The notes beneath the pieces were generated by a model. That model was not told the DNA's origin. It did not search any database and saw only the letters and a program-made list of their open reading frames with translations. Of a stretch of 55,157 bases of DNA, positions 4,670 through 37,482 are shown piece after piece. Origin of the DNA: Janthinobacterium sp. (GTDB lineage Bacteria > Pseudomonadota > Gammaproteobacteria > Burkholderiales > Burkholderiaceae_D); the NCBI GenBank assembly GCA_025356595.1, contig JANXSQ010000159.1, positions 1 to 55,157 on the forward strand, in the 5' to 3' direction. Position 1 is the stretch's first letter, and each line of letters begins with the position of its first letter. The position numbers and the translations under genes were made by a program.

Positions 4670-4678
4670 TGCGCCGGG

Positions 4679-4730
4679 CAAAAAAAGGGCGGTGAAGCCG
4701 GCTCAGCGCCCGGCCTCACCGCCCTTTTTT
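4679..4730. terminator. bidirectional intrinsic terminator
   Basis: A strong hairpin (GGGCGGTGA arm paired with TCACCGCCC, continued by GCCGG/CCGGC) is flanked by an A-run on the left and TTTTTT on the right. It can end both the XRE-cupin gene on the plus strand and the MerR-methyltransferase gene on the minus strand, which converge here. Confidence 0.88.
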
Positions 4731-4744
4731 GCTTCCAACAACGG

Positions 4745-6640
4745 TCAAACGGCGGCGCGCACCAGGCGCGTCACGCCGCCCATGCGCAGACCATCGCTGC
4801 GTCCGGCCAGATAGCGTTCGCTCAGTTGCGCCGCGCTGTAGCACTCGACCTGCCTGAATCCCATCTCGCGCAGCATCCCGGCCAGGGCCTGCGGATCGAA
4901 ATAGCTTTTCCAAGGCTCGCCGCGTTCGGCCGCCTTCGCGCTCATCATCTGCACGGCGGTGCGCTGCGCCGGCTCCAGCAAGGCTGGATCGACGCCGAAA
5001 TCGAAGACGATGGCGCTGCCCGGCGCGGCGGCGGCGACGACGCAGCGCAAGGTGCGCAGGATGTCCTCCATCTCCAGGTACATGGTCACGCCCAACCAGG
5101 CGAAGAAGGCCGGCTGGTCGGGACGGAAGCCGGCGTCCGCCAGCCCCGCGGCCAGCGTGCCGCGATCGAAATCGATTCCCGCGTAGCGCAGCGCGGCCGG
5201 TTCGGCGATGCCGGCGGCGCCCAGGCGCGCGCGTTTCCAGTTCTGGGTGGCCGGCAGGTCGACCTCGAAGATGCGGCTGTCGTGGCGCGGCGCGCCGCGA
5301 TAGGCGTAGGTGTCGAGGCCCGCGCCGAGCAGCACGTACTGGCGCACGCCGTCCTCCTCCGCGGCGGCCCATTCGTCCTCGGCCAGGCGGCTGCGCACCA
5401 CCAGCGAGGTGCGCAGCGCCGTCGACATCGGGTCGCGGTAGCGGCCGGCGGCGACGCTGGCGCGCAGGGCCTCCGCCTCGGCGGCGCCGAGAATCGTCAG
5501 GGCCAGCGGGTCCTCGAACACCAGCGGCGCGTCCAGCAATTGATGCGCGGCGCGCAGCACGGCCACCATGTGGGCGCTCGGCTTCGGTCCCGCCGCCTCT
5601 TCCTCCGGCGGGCGGTGCAGGTACATGATGGCCTGCTGGACGAACGCGATCAGGCGGGCGTCAACGCCGATGCCGCTCGACAGATCCGGTTCGACGTGGA
5701 AGGCGGCGCGCACCTTGGCGAGCAGGGCGCCGTCCTCGCCGCAGTAGGAGCTGTGGAACAAGGCCTCCCAGCGGCGCGCCAGGACCTGCACCGCCGCCTC
5801 GTCCAGGCCCGCCCCGGCATCCATTTGCCGGCGCAGGGCGGCGATCAGCGGCGGCCATTGCGCCGCATTCTCCAGCATGCGCAAGCGCACCCGCGCCGCT
5901 TCGTCCGGCGTCATGTGGCGCGCGAACAGGGCCGCGCGCAGGCCGGCGACGGCCTCCTGCACCCAGGCCGCCATGGCCTCGCTGACGCCGCTGATGTGGC
6001 GCAGGCGCGCCTCGTTCTTCTGCATGGTTTGAACCTTGAGCGCCCGGCCGATGTCGCCGCCCACGCTCTGGTCGAGCAAGTGCATCCAGCGCCGCGCCAG
6101 CGCCTGCGCCGCCGCGCCGCCGGCCGGCGTGGCCTGTTCGAGCGCGGCGCCGACTTCGCCGATGAGCGCCCTCCAGGCGCCGTCCAGGCCGGGGCCGGCG
6201 CCGTCCTTGCGCGCGCGCAGGGCCGCCAGTTCGTTTGCTGAAAAGTATTTTTCGTACATGGTCATTTTCTCCAGGATGGTGAGCCAATCGGCGATGGTGG
6301 TTTCCCGCCCGTCCTCCAGTTCCCGCCGCATGCGCCGCAGGCGCTTGGCCAGGCGCTGGCCGCGCTGCACCTGGGCGTCGACGGCGGCGATCTGCCGGGT
6401 GACGACCTCGAGCGGCGCCAGGCCGTTCTCGTCGAGCAGGGCGCCGATGTCGGCCAGCGAACAATCGAGTTGCTTGAGCGCGAGGATGCGGTGCAGGCGC
6501 AGCACGTCGTCCTGGTTGTACAGGCGAAAGCCGCTGGCGGAGCGGGCCGATGGGGAAAGCAGGCCGATGCCGTCGTAATGGTGCAGAGTGCGCACCGTCA
6601 ATGCGGCCCGCTTCGCCAGTTCTCCAATTTTCAACAACAT
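4745..6640 (-). CDS. MerR regulator - TipAS-like - SAM methyltransferase fusion
   Basis: This 631-residue protein joins parts that are normally separate. Residues 1-70 are a MerR winged helix (LLKIGELAKRAALTVRTLHHY, then GFRLYNQDDV), followed by a dimerisation coiled coil to about 125. Residues 130-210 and about 225-345 resemble two TipAS-like ligand-binding helical bundles. Residues 355-631 form a leucine-carboxyl-methyltransferase-type SAM enzyme (PPM1/TIGR00027 family), with VLLGAGLDTYAYR (436-448) as SAM-binding motif and DLPATQNWKR (461-470) as family motif. The frame is intact, with no sign that two genes were joined by error. I chose the ATG at 6640 because GGAGGAAG sits just upstream; the frame extends eight codons further. 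A MerR-type promoter lies before it, implying autoregulation. The methyl acceptor is unknown. Confidence 0.88.
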   Translation of the reverse strand: MLLKIGELAKRAALTVRTLHHYDGIGLLSPSARSASGFRLYNQDDVLRLHRILALKQLDCSLADIGALLDENGLAPLEVVTRQIAAVDAQVQRGQRLAKRLRRMRRELEDGRETTIADWLTILEKMTMYEKYFSANELAALRARKDGAGPGLDGAWRALIGEVGAALEQATPAGGAAAQALARRWMHLLDQSVGGDIGRALKVQTMQKNEARLRHISGVSEAMAAWVQEAVAGLRAALFARHMTPDEAARVRLRMLENAAQWPPLIAALRRQMDAGAGLDEAAVQVLARRWEALFHSSYCGEDGALLAKVRAAFHVEPDLSSGIGVDARLIAFVQQAIMYLHRPPEEEAAGPKPSAHMVAVLRAAHQLLDAPLVFEDPLALTILGAAEAEALRASVAAGRYRDPMSTALRTSLVVRSRLAEDEWAAAEEDGVRQYVLLGAGLDTYAYRGAPRHDSRIFEVDLPATQNWKRARLGAAGIAEPAALRYAGIDFDRGTLAAGLADAGFRPDQPAFFAWLGVTMYLEMEDILRTLRCVVAAAAPGSAIVFDFGVDPALLEPAQRTAVQMMSAKAAERGEPWKSYFDPQALAGMLREMGFRQVECYSAAQLSERYLAGRSDGLRMGGVTRLVRAAV

Positions 6641-6662
6641 CGTCGCTTCCTCCATGCAGGAC

Positions 6663-6693
6663 ATCGTAAATCCTCACCCTGCGTCAGGATCAA
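6663..6693 (-). promoter_or_regulatory. MerR-type promoter/operator of the methyltransferase fusion
   Basis: On the minus strand a -35 TTGATC (6693-6688) and a -10 TACGAT (6668-6663) are separated by 19 bases, the over-long spacer typical of promoters activated by MerR proteins. Within the spacer and -35, ATCCTGAC and GTGAGGAT form a near-perfect dyad around GCAGG (6670-6690), as expected for a MerR operator. The ribosome binding site and ATG of the fusion gene follow directly. Confidence 0.7.
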
Positions 6694-31989: not shown

Positions 31990-32616
31990 GCCTGATCAAA
32001 TGACTTGTCCTCGATAATTCGACTTCCAAACTCCGTGACCTTGATCCGAACAGAAAAATTGGTTTTATTCTGGCTTTTAATGTATCGCCACACGGAACCG
32101 TATTCGCTGGCATCCCGCGACAAGTAATTTTTCGACGAAGCACTTTATATTGGAGTTATTTTGACAATTCGCTTATCAATATAAAAACATACTTTAAATG
32201 TTATCATTTTAATGGTAGGCTAAATTGTGAGGAAAAGTCAACTTTGCTGTAGCCGATTTCCAACAACCCGCGTCCGCCAACGAATATCAGGCCGATATTC
32301 ATAATCAATACGCCCCCGTTGAACGGCTCCGGGATAGAACTGGGCTCAATTGGACGCCGACCGCGTGGCTGGCGCAAATACGGCGATGGAGTGAGGAGGA
32401 CGCAGCCACCCATAGGATTTCACTTGATCGACATTGTTTGTTGCTATAACATGCATTTTTATCATTAAACTAAATGCTGCGCCATTCGCCGCCTGCCTGT
32501 GCCTTGCCACGCGGTCCAAAGCATTCGCGTTTTAACATGACATCCAAAAATGCGATGAATTAACAGTCTTCCCCGTTTTTTATTCAAGGCCCTCGTCCGA
32601 TGTCCCAAGCAATTAA
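31990..32616. other. AT-rich stretch without a convincing gene
   Basis: This gap between the chemoreceptor leader and the ABC exporter genes is AT-richer than its surroundings. Short frames exist on both strands, but none has a ribosome binding site together with a recognisable product. It marks the left border of the accessory region. Confidence 0.5.
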
Positions 32617-33840
32617 ATGATAGAAATGCTCTTGCGCAAGCGCTTGCGATGGTATGCCCTTGCCACCGGCTGCCTTGTGCTGCGACGCTGGCAGGCACTG
32701 CTGCTGATTCTTGGCCTATTTGCGCCCATGGGCGTTTCGCTACTGTCCCAGCTTAAATCGCTGGCCTTTCCGGTTCTTCTTTTAATGGCGCCGGAAGATA
32801 GCTTCGTATGGCGCTATACATATATTTGTGCGCTGCAAGCGCTCGCGGTGATCTGGATAATGATGCAGCGCGATCAAGTCAGTGGCGGCGCGTTCATGCA
32901 GTACGCTGAATCGCTTCCATTGTCGCGCCAGCAAAAGCATGCGGTCGATGCGCTCCTCGTATCGACCGCGAACAGTCCGCTTTTTTTGATGCCGGTTGCG
33001 GCAATATGCTGGTTTTACGTTCAAGATGGGGGCACATTCGCGTGGCTACTGCATTGCTTGTTCATCCTCGTTTTTCTGCTCCTGATGACCTTCGGCCAAC
33101 TCAAGGCACTGGATCGACAATATACCGCCTGGGCCGGCATCGCGGTCGCGAACATCTCGCTCGCTGCGGCAGCGGGCGGCGGCCAAGCGGCAGAATTGAT
33201 CCTGCTGGGATGCGCACTGGCCATTGCCCGTCCATGGGCGGCCATCGTTCCGGCAAGCATTCACCTACCCTACCGGCGCGCCCTGCATCGCAGGTTTTCC
33301 ACAGTGTTTTCGAAGGCATCGTTTTCACGCGTGCATCCCGCAGCCTTTATCCCTTTGCACTTCCTGCTGCGCCAGTCGCTCGTGCAATCGCTGGCGAAAA
33401 TCGCCGTCGCGTTGGGCATCGCCACTGTGGCACTTGGACTGATGGCGGTCTGGGACTATGACGAACGCATAGTCCCCTTGGCGGTCATCGCGCTGGCCTG
33501 CATAGCGCTGGTGATCAGCGGCTTGTATCGCGATTTGCACATGGCGCACGATGCCGCCCAAGCTATCGTCGGCGCGTTTCCGCTGCCCGACAAATGGGAA
33601 CGCAAATTCGACACCGCGCTGCTGATGATGCTTGGCCTGCCATTCGCAGCGGTACTGGGCGGCGTCATCGTTTTTTATCATGCCCGATTACTCGCCGCCG
33701 TAGTCCTTGCCAGCGCGACGTTTTTAGGGCTGATAGGAATACTCCGCTGGCCGCAAGTTAACGCGCAACGCCAGGCCGTTTTTCTGAGTTCAGTGACCGC
33801 CGCGCTATGGGCCGTGCTGACCTTATCCGTGCATCTTTAG
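32617..33840 (+). CDS. polytopic membrane protein, probable ABC exporter permease
   Basis: This 407-residue protein has about ten hydrophobic helices, grouped in two halves around a loop (about 205-245, RRALHRRFSTVFSKASF), and no signal peptide. It is followed after 9 bases by an ABC ATPase gene, so the pair looks like an ABC-2-type exporter. I do not recognise the family, and the cargo is unknown. The start is uncertain: an ATG three codons later is equally possible and neither has a clear ribosome binding site. Its base composition is less GC-rich than the chromosomal genes nearby. Confidence 0.78.
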   Translation: MIEMLLRKRLRWYALATGCLVLRRWQALLLILGLFAPMGVSLLSQLKSLAFPVLLLMAPEDSFVWRYTYICALQALAVIWIMMQRDQVSGGAFMQYAESLPLSRQQKHAVDALLVSTANSPLFLMPVAAICWFYVQDGGTFAWLLHCLFILVFLLLMTFGQLKALDRQYTAWAGIAVANISLAAAAGGGQAAELILLGCALAIARPWAAIVPASIHLPYRRALHRRFSTVFSKASFSRVHPAAFIPLHFLLRQSLVQSLAKIAVALGIATVALGLMAVWDYDERIVPLAVIALACIALVISGLYRDLHMAHDAAQAIVGAFPLPDKWERKFDTALLMMLGLPFAAVLGGVIVFYHARLLAAVVLASATFLGLIGILRWPQVNAQRQAVFLSSVTAALWAVLTLSVHL

Positions 33841-33849
33841 GAGTGAATC

Positions 33850-34539
33850 GTGTTGCATTTTGAAAAGCTGTGCAAATCGTTTGGAAGTAAATCGGTCCTG
33901 GACAACGCTACTGCTCGATTTGATCATGACGTATTCGCTCTGCGGGGGCCGAATGGAATTGGCAAATCGACATTGCTGAAGGTTTTGGCCGGCATAGTCA
34001 AACCAGACAGCGGAATGATACAAATCGGCCCTCATTCGCTGCGGGACTCCCCTTTACTTGCCAAGGCCCGTCTGTCTTATGTTCCTGACGAATGTCCGGT
34101 CTACCCCTTCATGAGCGGTCGGGAGTTTTTGAAATTTGTCGCGTACGCCAAACGATGCGAGATCAGCGCCGACGTTTTTCGTATCGTCGCAAGCCTCGGC
34201 ATGACCCCGCACCTCGACACCCGGGTTTCGGACATGTCACTTGGCATGCAAAAGAAAACGATGCTGGCCGCCGCATGGATAGGCGAGCCGCTCGTCATGC
34301 TCTTCGACGAGCCGAGCAACGGTTTGGATGTGGCGGCGCGCGACGTGGTCATCGGCCTGGTGAAGGCCTCCCGGCTTAGCCGCACCATACTGATTTCAAC
34401 GCATGATGAATATTTTATCGCCGGGCTCGAGGCCAAGATCATCATGTTCGAGAGCCTGCTTCAAGACGGCCTCATGGAGAAACAAGCGGAAAAACGCTCG
34501 TATCGAATTGAACAATCCGCCTCGACGACATTCCAGTAA
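33850..34539 (+). CDS. ABC transporter ATP-binding protein
   Basis: This 229-residue ATPase has Walker A GPNGIGKST (about 37-45), a variant signature DMSLGMQKK, Walker B LVMLFDEPSNGLD and switch His in ISTHDE. The LSLGM-like signature is common in ABC-2 exporters. It starts at GTG, 9 bases after the permease stop, with GGAG just upstream. An IS110-type remnant begins right at its 3' end, so the last residues may have been changed by that insertion. Substrate unknown. Confidence 0.9.
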   Translation: MLHFEKLCKSFGSKSVLDNATARFDHDVFALRGPNGIGKSTLLKVLAGIVKPDSGMIQIGPHSLRDSPLLAKARLSYVPDECPVYPFMSGREFLKFVAYAKRCEISADVFRIVASLGMTPHLDTRVSDMSLGMQKKTMLAAAWIGEPLVMLFDEPSNGLDVAARDVVIGLVKASRLSRTILISTHDEYFIAGLEAKIIMFESLLQDGLMEKQAEKRSYRIEQSASTTFQ

Positions 34540-34574
34540 AGCGGCTTCGACGCTTGGGCAACAGGCGAGTCTGG

Positions 34575-34800
34575 CCTTGGCGCTCCCGCCACTCCTGCCC
34601 GACGTCCGCCAACTTGCGGGCCACCCAGTGCCCGCCCGTGCAGGCGTCCATAAACATGGTGCAGGCAGGGTAAATTGGCGAGGAAATCGATCAGCTGCTT
34701 GTGACTGCACTTCTTGCGCAGCAGGGCCTTGCCATGCCGCTCCTGGCCGTGAAGATGAAAGCTATGCTTGCCGAGGTCGACACCGATGAGCGTATAGTGT
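34575..34800 (-). pseudogene. IS110-family transposase remnant (N-terminal part, frameshifted)
   Basis: The minus strand encodes YTLIGVDLGKHSFHLHGQ and KALLRKKCSHKQLIDFLANLP, the start of an IS110-type DEDD transposase including its first Asp. The reading frame then shifts and continues as MDACTGGHWVARKLADVGQE before homology fades. The rest, about 250 or more residues, is missing. No intact ends can be defined. The fragment abuts the 3' end of the ABC ATPase gene and shows past transposition in this region. Confidence 0.8.
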
Positions 34801-35139
34801 TCGCCCCGCCTCCCCCAAGCACTGCGCATCAAAAAACAGCCTGGCATATTGAGTGGCATGATGCGTCGATAGGAAGTTCGAATTGGGAATTTTCCATCCA
34901 GAATATTTCTGGACATACACAAGCACGCATTTCTACTTGGCGCGAAGAAACAGTGAGACGGCCCCTGCATTATCCTGAAAACACCCCGCGAAACTCCCCA
35001 CATGCATACCGGAGAAAATTGGACGCCGGTCAATTCATGGCACATTCCTTGGACTACGATTAATTAACGCGAGGCGTTTCATTTTGATTCCAATGGTCAT
35101 CAAATTAGTGGCTTGCGTGAATTATATTCTGGGGGAAAT

Positions 35140-35664
35140 ATGGACGAACAAGAGATGCTGCTATTTTTTCTTTTGCTTTTCCTTGACAATCCCCGGCCTG
35201 GAAAACTAGGGCCTATTGTTTATGTTCAGCCGCCCGCCGGTCGTGTCGATACGCCCGATTCAGGATGCAATGGTGCCGAACCCAACTTTGATCTTGCCGC
35301 TGGCATCATCAGGGCCAGCGGCGTGTCCAAAGGAGAGAAAAGCCTTCCAGCGCTGAACATAAAACCAAAGAAATTGCAAAATCTGGCGACGTGCGCCGCT
35401 GTATGCACCACAGTTCCAAATTGGGTAAAGGCATCGGACTCCAATGTCGACATCCTATGGAATCCATTGGGCGGCAAGCCCGACGAGGTGCATCCCTACG
35501 CCAAGGCGGCCTACAACAGAACCGACGCGGGGCTAGGCTATCATCGGGTTTACAGCGGGGTCACCTCAGGCGCTTGGGGCGAGAATAATCTTGTTTGCAA
35601 ATTCGTTCAGAATTGGGCCTATCCCGGACCGGCCCGTTCATTTCGCCTTCGGGTTAACTATTAG
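35140..35664 (+). CDS. unrecognised 174-residue protein
   Basis: I do not recognise this protein. The ATG at 35140 follows a strong GGGGGAA ribosome binding site. The N-terminus has a short hydrophobic run (MLLFFLLLFL) without a positive start or clear cleavage site, so export is uncertain. Four cysteines occur (SGCNGAE, ATCAAVC, LVCKFV), and the end (CKFVQNWAYPGPARSFRLRVNY) looks like beta strands. It stands alone after the IS110 remnant and downstream of the ABC exporter, in AT-richer DNA. It might be an exporter cargo or a cargo gene of the island; nothing shows this directly. Confidence 0.65.
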   Translation: MDEQEMLLFFLLLFLDNPRPGKLGPIVYVQPPAGRVDTPDSGCNGAEPNFDLAAGIIRASGVSKGEKSLPALNIKPKKLQNLATCAAVCTTVPNWVKASDSNVDILWNPLGGKPDEVHPYAKAAYNRTDAGLGYHRVYSGVTSGAWGENNLVCKFVQNWAYPGPARSFRLRVNY

Positions 35665-35802
35665 CGTCGAATATATAGTTATGGTTTATGTGAACAGGGC
35701 AAGAAAAGATGCGACAGAAAGCGCGCCTGGAGAACGCTCTAAAAACCAGCTGCATATTGAAGCGGATCTTTCAATATACTCACTACCATTATGTGATCGC
35801 GA

Positions 35803-35830
35803 TGAAAAACGGCGGCTTCAAGCCGCCGCC
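35803..35830 (-). terminator. intrinsic terminator of the 542-residue protein gene
   Basis: CGGCGGCTT and AAGCCGCCG form a tight hairpin (35810-35828). On the minus strand it is followed by GTTTTTC. It lies about 25 bases after the stop codon of the gene at 35854. Confidence 0.8.
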
Positions 35831-35853
35831 ATGATGAAGAGCAGATTTGCCAA

Positions 35854-37482
35854 CTACTGAGCGGCGCTGGCGCGATCCTTGCCGGCGGGCTCCACCGTGC
35901 TCAGGACATCAGGATAGGGCCGCAGGAAGATCTGCTCATTCAGGGCCGACAGCGTTTGCTCGCGCTGGTAGATTTTTTCGTCGCGGGTCTGCTTGCCAGT
36001 TCCGCTTTGGTAAAGCGCCAAGGCATCCACCAGATCGCGCTGCAAGGATTGCTGACCGGGCGTGATCGTGTCGTTCACCAGTTTGCCCAGCGCATAGCGC
36101 ATGAAGTGGCTGGACTGCTTGGCCGACTGCTCGATCGTCGCCTTGCTCAGGCGTCCTTCGGCATAAGCCAAACGCACATCGCTGTTGGCCGAGTCGTCGA
36201 TCTGATAATAGTCGTAATACTGCGATTCTTGCGTGTGGTCCAGTCTCAACTGGGTGCCCGGCGTGCTCGGCGTGTGGAAGCTGGCGCTCAGCGCGGATTT
36301 TTGTTGCTGTGCGATGGAGCGACTGTCCTTGTCGCGGCCCGTCAGGCTGGTGCTCTGCGACACTTGGTACGAGAAGCTGTCCTGTTCCATCGGGCGCATC
36401 GGATTGCTCGACTTCGCAGTCTGCGTGAGCGTAGCCTTGAAGTCGGCCAGGCCGGTCAGGACGGCGCGGTCCTCGGCCGCCAATTGCCACTTGCTCGGCT
36501 GAAGCGCGCCGCCAGCCGCTTGCGCCGCGGCGCCGTAATTGCTGTTCATCCCGACAAACCCATCCTTGAACATGGACATGAGCGCCGCGTCGCCGTGTCC
36601 GCGCGACGCAGCCTGGTCGAATTGATTCACATAATTGGCCACGGCCTTCGCCTGCTGCCGCGCATTGCCCACGCCGGCAAGCTTGCTCATGTCCACGCTG
36701 ACGGCGGCCGCGCCGGACGCATTGCTAAAGCTGAGCTTTCTTTGCGCGCCGTCGGCGTGGAACTCCAACGTTTGCGTGCTTTCCGGATCGGTGTTCATCT
36801 TCACCGCGGCGCGCAAATCCACCGACGCCAGCACCGCCGGATCGAATTGCGTCAGCCCCGCCAGCTTGATTTGCGGAGGATTATGGGCGATGCCATCGAT
36901 AGCATCCTGAAACGCCGCCGCAAGGCCGGCCAGCGCGCGCCGCTCAACGTCGCTGAGTTCGCCGCTGGTGCTCATTTTGACGGCCAAGCCATCATCCTGG
37001 CTATCCAAGGCTAGGGTGACTTGCGCCCCGCTCGCGGTGGTGATGTTAAGGGATACTTTATTGTCGCCAACGCCATGCAGCGCGGCGGGCGACACGGCGT
37101 CGATTTCACCATATGTATCGGCTTGAGTCCGCTGCGGCGCGAGTTGCACCGATTGCGACACGTTCTTGCCCTCGCCCTTGAATTGCTCGAGCAGCGCCGC
37201 ACCCAAGCCACTGAAGCGGCCGGCGAGGAAACGCGAAGAAAAATTCTTCGCTATCAAGGCGCTGACCGCGTCCTGCGACTTGTTTTCCCACGTCAGCGAA
37301 GGCGCCACATCCGCCATCCCCTGCAAGCCTTGCAGGGACGCCGTGACGCCCCCCGGAGTCAAGGTGACGATGGTGGAAGGCATGACCAATGGAGAGGCCG
37401 GCGCCTCATCCTGCTTCGCCGCCAACGCGGACGAGCGGGCCGAGGTCGGATTCCAGGCGGGAACTGAGGATATGGCGGTCAT
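35854..37482 (-). CDS. unrecognised 542-residue soluble protein
   Basis: I cannot assign this protein to a characterised family. It has no signal peptide and no membrane helix, a Ser/Ala/Pro-rich start (TAISSVPAWNPTSARSS), and a middle part with a beta-rich segment (VSLNITTASGAQVTLALDS) followed by a helix (ELSDVERRALAGLAAAFQDAIDGI). The C-terminal part is rich in Gln and Ser. Parts of that pattern recall hypothetical proteins of motile betaproteobacteria. It is monocistronic with a good terminator, and its codon use is closer to the chromosomal genes than its left neighbours, so it is likely an expressed gene. Confidence 0.75.
   Translation of the reverse strand: MTAISSVPAWNPTSARSSALAAKQDEAPASPLVMPSTIVTLTPGGVTASLQGLQGMADVAPSLTWENKSQDAVSALIAKNFSSRFLAGRFSGLGAALLEQFKGEGKNVSQSVQLAPQRTQADTYGEIDAVSPAALHGVGDNKVSLNITTASGAQVTLALDSQDDGLAVKMSTSGELSDVERRALAGLAAAFQDAIDGIAHNPPQIKLAGLTQFDPAVLASVDLRAAVKMNTDPESTQTLEFHADGAQRKLSFSNASGAAAVSVDMSKLAGVGNARQQAKAVANYVNQFDQAASRGHGDAALMSMFKDGFVGMNSNYGAAAQAAGGALQPSKWQLAAEDRAVLTGLADFKATLTQTAKSSNPMRPMEQDSFSYQVSQSTSLTGRDKDSRSIAQQQKSALSASFHTPSTPGTQLRLDHTQESQYYDYYQIDDSANSDVRLAYAEGRLSKATIEQSAKQSSHFMRYALGKLVNDTITPGQQSLQRDLVDALALYQSGTGKQTRDEKIYQREQTLSALNEQIFLRPYPDVLSTVEPAGKDRASAAQ

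What the first reader, a model, noticed from the sequence alone, without database searches (positions are those of the whole stretch)
4745..6693. MerR regulator fused to TipAS-like regions and a SAM methyltransferase, with its own MerR-type promoter
One intact frame joins a MerR DNA-binding part, two TipAS-like ligand-binding regions and a leucine-carboxyl-methyltransferase-type SAM enzyme (LGAGLDTYAYR). MerR-TipAS proteins bind drugs; here an enzyme is added that could modify the bound ligand, making sensor and detoxifier one molecule. A TTGATC-19 bp-TACGAT promoter with an inner dyad lies just before it, so the protein probably activates its own gene. The domains are established families; the combined role is inference.
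Basis: partly seen in the sequence, partly recalled or inferred. Interest (0 to 1): 0.72.

Follow-up and report, generated by a model that had tools for sequence, protein, structure and literature searches.

The report
Drug-sensing regulator fused to methyltransferase
A relative of Janthinobacterium carries one protein that joins a self-switching drug sensor of the AlbA type to a methyl-transferring enzyme, and other bacteria keep the same two parts as neighbouring genes under the same switch, which suggests a one-protein antibiotic resistance device.

Summary
The gene (4745-6640, minus strand, 631 aa) is one intact frame: a MerR DNA-binding part, two TipAS repeats matching the albicidin-binding protein AlbA (E 1e-26), and a TIGR00027/LCM-type SAM methyltransferase (E 6e-53). 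It is no assembly join: five other genomes, one in another family, carry the fusion, and the six sensor parts form one clade. A MerR-type promoter with 19-bp spacer stands before all six. The strongest new result is from unfused relatives: there the methyltransferase gene lies beside a MerR-AlbA gene, with the same operator directly before the methyltransferase. The operator is present in 28 of 28 linked loci (one read by eye) and 5 of 37 unlinked. So the enzyme looks like an output of the sensor, and the fusion merges both. Three relatives have a second accD copy in the operon, one an amidase. That the enzyme methylates the captured drug is inference; the ligand is unknown (6 of 11 albicidin contacts kept). 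I call it a new variant of the TipA/AlbA class; five literature searches listed no paper on it.

The parts
4745..6640 (-). fusion gene, 631 aa plus stop, likely start ATG at 6640
6326..6640 (-). MerR-type DNA-binding part, residues 1-105
   Evidence: MerR_1 4-71; TipA DNA-binding chain 2vz4, 4-102
5924..6259 (-). first TipAS repeat, residues 128-239
   Evidence: PF07739 155-231; AlbA-S
5612..5923 (-). second TipAS repeat, residues 240-343
   Evidence: AlbA-S match runs 126-343; not seen by Pfam
4748..5575 (-). LCM/TIGR00027 SAM-dependent methyltransferase, residues 356-631
5297..5329 (-). SAM-binding motif LGAGLDTYAYR, residues 438-448 (motif role recalled)
   Evidence: GAGLDT invariant in five fusions
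6663..6693 (-). MerR-type promoter TTGATC - 19 bp - TACGAT
6672..6688 (-). operator dyad CCTGAC-N5-GTGAGG (5 of 6 matched)
6649..6653 (-). ribosome-binding site GGAGG, 8 nt before the ATG
6257..6259 (-). possible internal start (Met128) for an AlbA-S-like short form that keeps the enzyme
   Evidence: Met conserved in 5 of 5 fusions, GGAG before it in 4 of 5 (those bases also encode Leu-Glu, so protein constraint may explain them)
4678..4732 (-). strong hairpin whose arms end in A and T runs, possible terminator
   Evidence: z -5.2 as single-stranded DNA; the consensus terminator scan did not list it

Best explanation
It is a self-inducing antibiotic resistance protein. The MerR part sits on the 19-bp-spacer promoter of its own gene. 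When the double TipAS part closes on a drug, the protein remodels the promoter and more of it is made. The rising protein soaks up drug as AlbA does, and the C-terminal methyltransferase, an output of the same switch in relatives, methylates the captured compound, by family chemistry most likely at an acidic oxygen such as a carboxylate. Shown here: architecture, conservation, operator, coupling of enzyme and sensor. Inferred from AlbA/TipA: drug binding and self-activation. Inferred only: the methylation step and the ligand.
For: Same fusion in six genomes of two families; the six sensor parts form one clade, SH-aLRT 100. Operator before all six (leave-one-out scores of five 28.9-37.5). Operator before the methyltransferase in 28 of 28 loci where it is fused to or beside MerR-AlbA or TipAS parts (L082 read by eye with a 20-bp spacer). 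TipAS-methyltransferase proteins without MerR in four genomes keep the operator, so the binding part may serve the enzyme apart from DNA binding. SAM motif intact. dN/dS of the enzyme 0.34-0.49 in three comparisons. Resistance-type companions: second accD copy in three genomes (positions), amidase and beta-lactamase-family protein in one. K. oxytoca AlbA binds a dyad in a 19-bp spacer and activates transcription with albicidin (PMC10189885, passages).
Against: Five of 11 albicidin contacts differ (F16, N24, N75, H78, W195), so the ligand may not be albicidin-like. The contacts W27, W133, W162 and R181 are kept in 33-36 of the 37 rows labelled unlinked and prove little. On the methyltransferase tree the full-fusion state changes at least three times, so that tree alone does not show one fusion event; the independent-pairs test has 3 pairs and is not significant. 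The fusion is rare: 3 of 40 genomes in the genus, 2 of 399 in the order sample. The first TipAS repeat has dN/dS 0.47-0.82 in the three close comparisons. No enzyme activity or substrate is shown. The structure model failed (pLDDT 46), so how pocket and active site lie to each other is unknown.
Confidence: 0.55

Rival explanations
1. The sensor induces the enzyme, but the enzyme methylates a cellular molecule (target protection or signal), not the drug.
For: The operator link shows co-regulation only. In three relatives the operon also holds a spare AccD, so target-side resistance occurs in this setting. The eukaryotic LCM enzyme acts on a protein carboxyl end (recalled; one abstract start states methylation of PP2A Leu309).
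Against: Direct fusion to a drug-binding-type part, and TipAS-methyltransferase proteins without MerR, favour the bound compound as substrate.
Confidence: 0.2
2. The protein handles an endogenous metabolite: the regulator senses an own product and the methyltransferase is its biosynthetic or catabolic enzyme.
For: TIGR00027-type enzymes also stand without operator or MerR-AlbA neighbour in 35 of 66 loci.
Against: The five neighbouring genes searched are serine dehydratase, epimerase, glycine C-acetyltransferase, HTH-cupin regulator and prolyl oligopeptidase, no biosynthetic cluster; the rest of the window was not searched for one. Presence is scattered and companions in some relatives are resistance-like.
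Confidence: 0.13
3. The methyltransferase part is inert or only senses SAM for the regulator.
For: No catalysis shown; fusion to a regulator.
Against: In 17 of 66 loci the enzyme is a separate gene preceded by the operator (L082 by eye); SAM motif kept and dN/dS below 0.5.
Confidence: 0.07
4. Frame error or assembly join of two genes.
For: Unfused neighbours exist in relatives.
Against: Six intact fusions in separate assemblies.
Confidence: 0.01

Closest known systems
AlbA of Klebsiella oxytoca (MerR-type albicidin-binding regulator, short form AlbA-S)
   Same: MerR part plus double TipAS; 19-bp-spacer dyad promoter of its own gene (PMC10189885, passages); binding part also made alone
   Different: AlbA-L is 348 aa, so has no room for an enzyme (PMC6078987, passages); 5 of 11 albicidin contacts differ here
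TipA class (TipA-L/TipA-S, SkgA, Mta)
   Same: MerR DNA-binding part and TipAS effector domain (PMC7762955, passages)
   Different: one TipAS repeat and no methyltransferase in the class as described in those passages
TIGR00027 / PF04072 methyltransferases (ML2640, Rv0731c structures)
   Same: family match above cut-off with SAM motif; sequence match to both structures
   Different: those are short single-domain chains called putative methyltransferases; here fused to a regulator
AdmT, the duplicated accD of andrimid producers
   Same: extra AccD copy, seen in three relatives' operons
   Different: there in the andrimid cluster (PMC13151354, passages); the window's genome has one accD match

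Membership tests
TipA/AlbA class of MerR regulators | N-terminal MerR HTH | tested here: met
TipA/AlbA class of MerR regulators | C-terminal TipAS domain, double as in AlbA | tested here: met
   second repeat by AlbA alignment only
TipA/AlbA class of MerR regulators | 19-20 bp spacer promoter with dyad before own gene | tested here: met
   by sequence, no binding data
TipA/AlbA class of MerR regulators | short form from an internal start | tested here: inconclusive
   internal ATG in 5 of 5, GGAG in 4 of 5; no expression data
TipA/AlbA class of MerR regulators | antibiotic binding and induced self-activation | not testable with these tools
   needs bench work
AlbA as albicidin binder | albicidin contact residues | tested here: inconclusive
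   6 of 11 identical
TIGR00027/LCM methyltransferases | score over curated cut-off | tested here: met
   179.8 against 93.55 bits; 145.8 against 22.3 bits
TIGR00027/LCM methyltransferases | SAM-binding GAGLDT motif (motif role recalled) | tested here: met
   invariant in five fusions
TIGR00027/LCM methyltransferases | SAM-dependent methyl transfer to a carboxylate or other oxygen | not testable with these tools
   no assay

The most novel reading that the evidence does not exclude
A complete antibiotic resistance system in one polypeptide with one operator in the genome: it senses a drug, switches on its own gene, sequesters the drug and esterifies its acid group. It is the fused end of an undescribed family of MerR-AlbA operons whose enzyme output is an LCM-type methyltransferase, sometimes joined by a spare AccD or hydrolases.
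Probability: 0.4. Interest if true: 0.82.

Novelty: new variant of a known kind. Interest (0 to 1): 0.62.

Why it matters
AlbA-type proteins are known as sponges that make more of themselves. A fused enzyme would turn a sponge into a catalyst, and drug inactivation by an LCM-type methyltransferase would be resistance chemistry that I saw in none of the papers listed. The operator ties sensor to enzyme in many genomes of the window's family, so a regulon can be predicted and the inducing compound looked for with a simple reporter. The second accD copies point to acetyl-CoA carboxylase inhibitors as candidate ligands in one branch.

Tried and rejected
Structure of the whole fusion: only three sequences were put into the alignment (the rule on eligible sequences), the model is poor (pLDDT 46, pTM 0.32) and was neither searched nor used.

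Albicidin as the ligand: 6 of 11 contacts kept, not decisive. I first took the kept contacts of the second half as a sign of a carboxylate-bearing ligand, but W133, W162 and R181 are kept in 35, 36 and 33 of the 37 rows labelled unlinked (one of these, L073, is mislabelled: it does have a methyltransferase upstream), so I dropped this as evidence. The same mislabel of L073 stands in the tree.

Tree-based significance of operator and linkage: too few independent pairs.

Defence link: the only PADLOC hit (mad1) covers residues 1-51, the HTH, alone, rejected.

L075 and L151, in the second operator clade, have no operator by the matrix; not resolved. Spacers of 20 bp were tried for part of the loci and by eye for L082, not across all loci.

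accD search by BLAST used a wrong reading frame of L031 and is void; the accD calls rest on the TIGR00515 search and the frames printed.

Left out of the 66-row methyltransferase table: G507 (two copies) and G359; the contig-end piece of G051, the short match of G023, and matches weaker than 1e-25. A further 21 methyltransferase loci (L165-L177 and nine of L192-L204, less L175 which repeats G028) were looked at with 1.5-kb flanks: none has MerR-AlbA beside it and none has a site of 15 or more (in L192 the contig ends at the gene). They were not added to the counts. Three long rows (L083, L084, L091) were dropped. The operator matrix was trained on five of the six fusion promoters.

Searches score only the best few candidates per genome, and the genome samples overlap, so the frequencies are not additive.

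Literature: searches found no paper; others (19 papers, 15 listed; 5 listed) were seen as listings only and no title or abstract start describes such a fusion. Subscription papers and domain-architecture databases were not searched.

Slips in my notebook: entry 6 says GGAG in 5 of 5 (it is 4 of 5); entry 2 gives a class name for G423 that no call showed, and counts G209 among the fusions.

Full report
What is there. The window gene at 4745-6640 (minus) is one intact frame of 631 residues. The upstream ATG at 6664 overlaps the -10 box, and a GGAGG lies 8 nt before the ATG at 6640, so 6640 is the likely start. MerR_1 (4-71), TipAS (155-231), LCM (356-534) and TIGR00027 (356-611) match above their cut-offs. 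Residues 126-343 match AlbA-S structures over nearly their whole length (E 1e-26), so the two TipAS-like regions are the double TipAS of AlbA. A strong hairpin whose arms end in A and T runs follows the gene (4678-4732, z -5.2), though the consensus terminator scan did not list it.

Not an artefact. With the window that is six. Frequencies of the full fusion, window included: 3 of 40 genomes of the genus (a fourth, G209, has the binding part and enzyme without MerR), 3 of 195 sampled in the family, 1 of 369 in the class sample, 2 of 398 in the phylum sample, 2 of 399 in the order sample. The samples overlap. Of 39 genus genomes with the flanking HTH-cupin gene, 25 gave loci: 3 carry the fusion beside it, and in the other 22 no match to it lies within the 1.5-kb flank. 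dN/dS between the window gene and the two Janthinobacterium genes is 0.15-0.17 for the DNA-binding part, 0.35-0.41 for the second TipAS, 0.40-0.49 for the enzyme and 0.77-0.82 for the first TipAS; between the two Janthinobacterium genes these are 0.11, 0.27, 0.34 and 0.47. The first half of the pocket changes fastest.

Promoter. The five fusions first compared carry a -35-like box, 19 bp and a -10-like box with a dyad at the same place; G1061 has it too. A matrix built from the five scores each left-out site at 28.9-37.5. Of 44 distinct MerR-AlbA proteins without a methyltransferase in the locus held, 38 have a site of 20 or more within 400 bp upstream, 4 score 15-20 and 2 less (L162, whose site looks similar by eye, and L031, where an accD gene lies between); of 440 shuffled upstream stretches, 1 reaches 20. 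So this operator belongs to the MerR-AlbA family at large. In the window's genome a fuller pattern has one exact match, this promoter; the only other hit has three mismatches and the reversed control gives four hits. The protein therefore probably controls only itself.

The enzyme as output. I collected 66 methyltransferase loci: all 60 matches listed in the family search, 5 of the 8 in the class sample and one. Five are full fusions; four carry TipAS sequence without MerR (L087, L122-L124; the TipAS part of L122 is seen by BLAST to the window protein, not by Pfam), three of them with a separate MerR-AlbA gene behind; 17 others have a separate MerR-AlbA gene on the same strand, 15 with the methyltransferase first and 2 with MerR first; 40 have none in the flank held (for L070 the contig ends 110 bases past the gene). 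The operator lies before the methyltransferase in 5 of 5, 4 of 4, 17 of 17 and 5 of 40. One of the 17, L082, scores low because its spacer is 20 bp; I read it by eye. Otherwise scores are bimodal: 20.9 and up, or 14.6 and down. With G1061 and the pair in G986 (L161) added and three long rows dropped, 28 of 28 linked loci have the operator and 5 of 37 unlinked do. Caveat: related loci count many times. On the tree the operator state changes at least 3 times, and the independent-pairs test has 3 pairs and cannot reach significance. The argument rests on conservation of an intergenic site between enzymes that are mostly 44-59% identical to the window's.

History. In the sensor tree (quick method) the six fusions form one clade, SH-aLRT 100, while the MerR-AlbA genes beside methyltransferases fall in two other groups. 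In the methyltransferase tree the fusions lie in one clade (100/100) with the operon-type enzymes, all 25 rows of which carry the operator, but there the full-fusion state changes at least three times. Some operon-type enzymes (L122-L124) still carry a TipAS half. My reading is one fusion, later trimmed in part of the clade and served by another MerR-AlbA; independent fusions are not excluded.

Companions. In L129 and L132 the order is operator, methyltransferase, accD, MerR-AlbA; in L031 it is operator, accD, MerR-AlbA. These three genomes each have two accD matches over the cut-off; the window's genome and one other checked have one. AccA/AccD is the target of andrimid and moiramide, and andrimid producers duplicate accD for self-resistance (PMC13151354, passages). 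In L073 an amidase lies between methyltransferase and MerR-AlbA, and a beta-lactamase-family protein is the second gene after MerR-AlbA. Not every neighbour fits: the genes after the pair in L125 and L126 are TPR proteins. Still, a spare target and hydrolases argue that the switch answers to antibiotics.

Mechanism. AlbA binds a dyad in a 19-bp spacer, activates with albicidin and is called a self-regulatory sponge (PMC10189885, passages); unliganded TipAS domains hinder DNA binding until drug binds (PMC7762955, passages). By analogy the window protein would capture a drug and raise its own level. The added step is methylation. LCM-family enzymes methylate carboxyl groups (recalled for the eukaryotic enzyme), so an acidic group on the drug is my guess; nothing here shows it. 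Of 11 albicidin contacts in AlbA-S, W27, W133, W162, Y169, R181 and Q205 are kept and F16, N24, N75, H78 and W195 are not (residues from PMC6078987, passages). The ligand may be related or quite different. An internal Met128 is conserved in five fusions, with GGAG before it in four; it could yield a short sponge-enzyme form without the DNA-binding part, which G209 seems to have as its only form.

Known or new. MerR plus double TipAS is AlbA; TIGR00027 enzymes are known; an operator of this kind is expected. The fusion, and the coupling of this enzyme to MerR-AlbA sensors, appeared in no paper listed. I call it a new variant of a known kind, interest 0.62.

Noticed in passing
L129, L132 and L031 (accD between operator and MerR-AlbA): A second accD copy sits under the MerR-AlbA operator, with the methyltransferase in two genomes and without in one; this looks like inducible target duplication against acetyl-CoA carboxylase inhibitors.
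   Followed up: partly
L073:5906-11965: MerR-type operator followed by methyltransferase, amidase, MerR-AlbA, a 455-aa protein without Pfam match at 1e-5 and a beta-lactamase-family protein.
   Followed up: partly
L179:4962-10460 (minus): An 1833-aa open frame in another genome of the phylum ends in an LCM methyltransferase domain (1560-1736); no other Pfam family at 1e-5.
   Followed up: partly
window 32000-36000: Low-GC stretch (0.53-0.54) with what reads like a membrane protein plus ABC ATPase pair (32617-34539); no family search run.
   Followed up: no
window 34461-35045 (minus): Frame whose middle resembles the start of an IS110-type transposase (motif recalled), probably a remnant.
   Followed up: no
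window 5924-6259: The first TipAS repeat evolves faster than the other parts in all three close comparisons (dN/dS 0.47-0.82), hinting at changing ligands.
   Followed up: partly
L122, L123, L124: Methyltransferases that keep only a TipAS half at their N-terminus, with a complete MerR-AlbA gene directly behind.
   Followed up: partly
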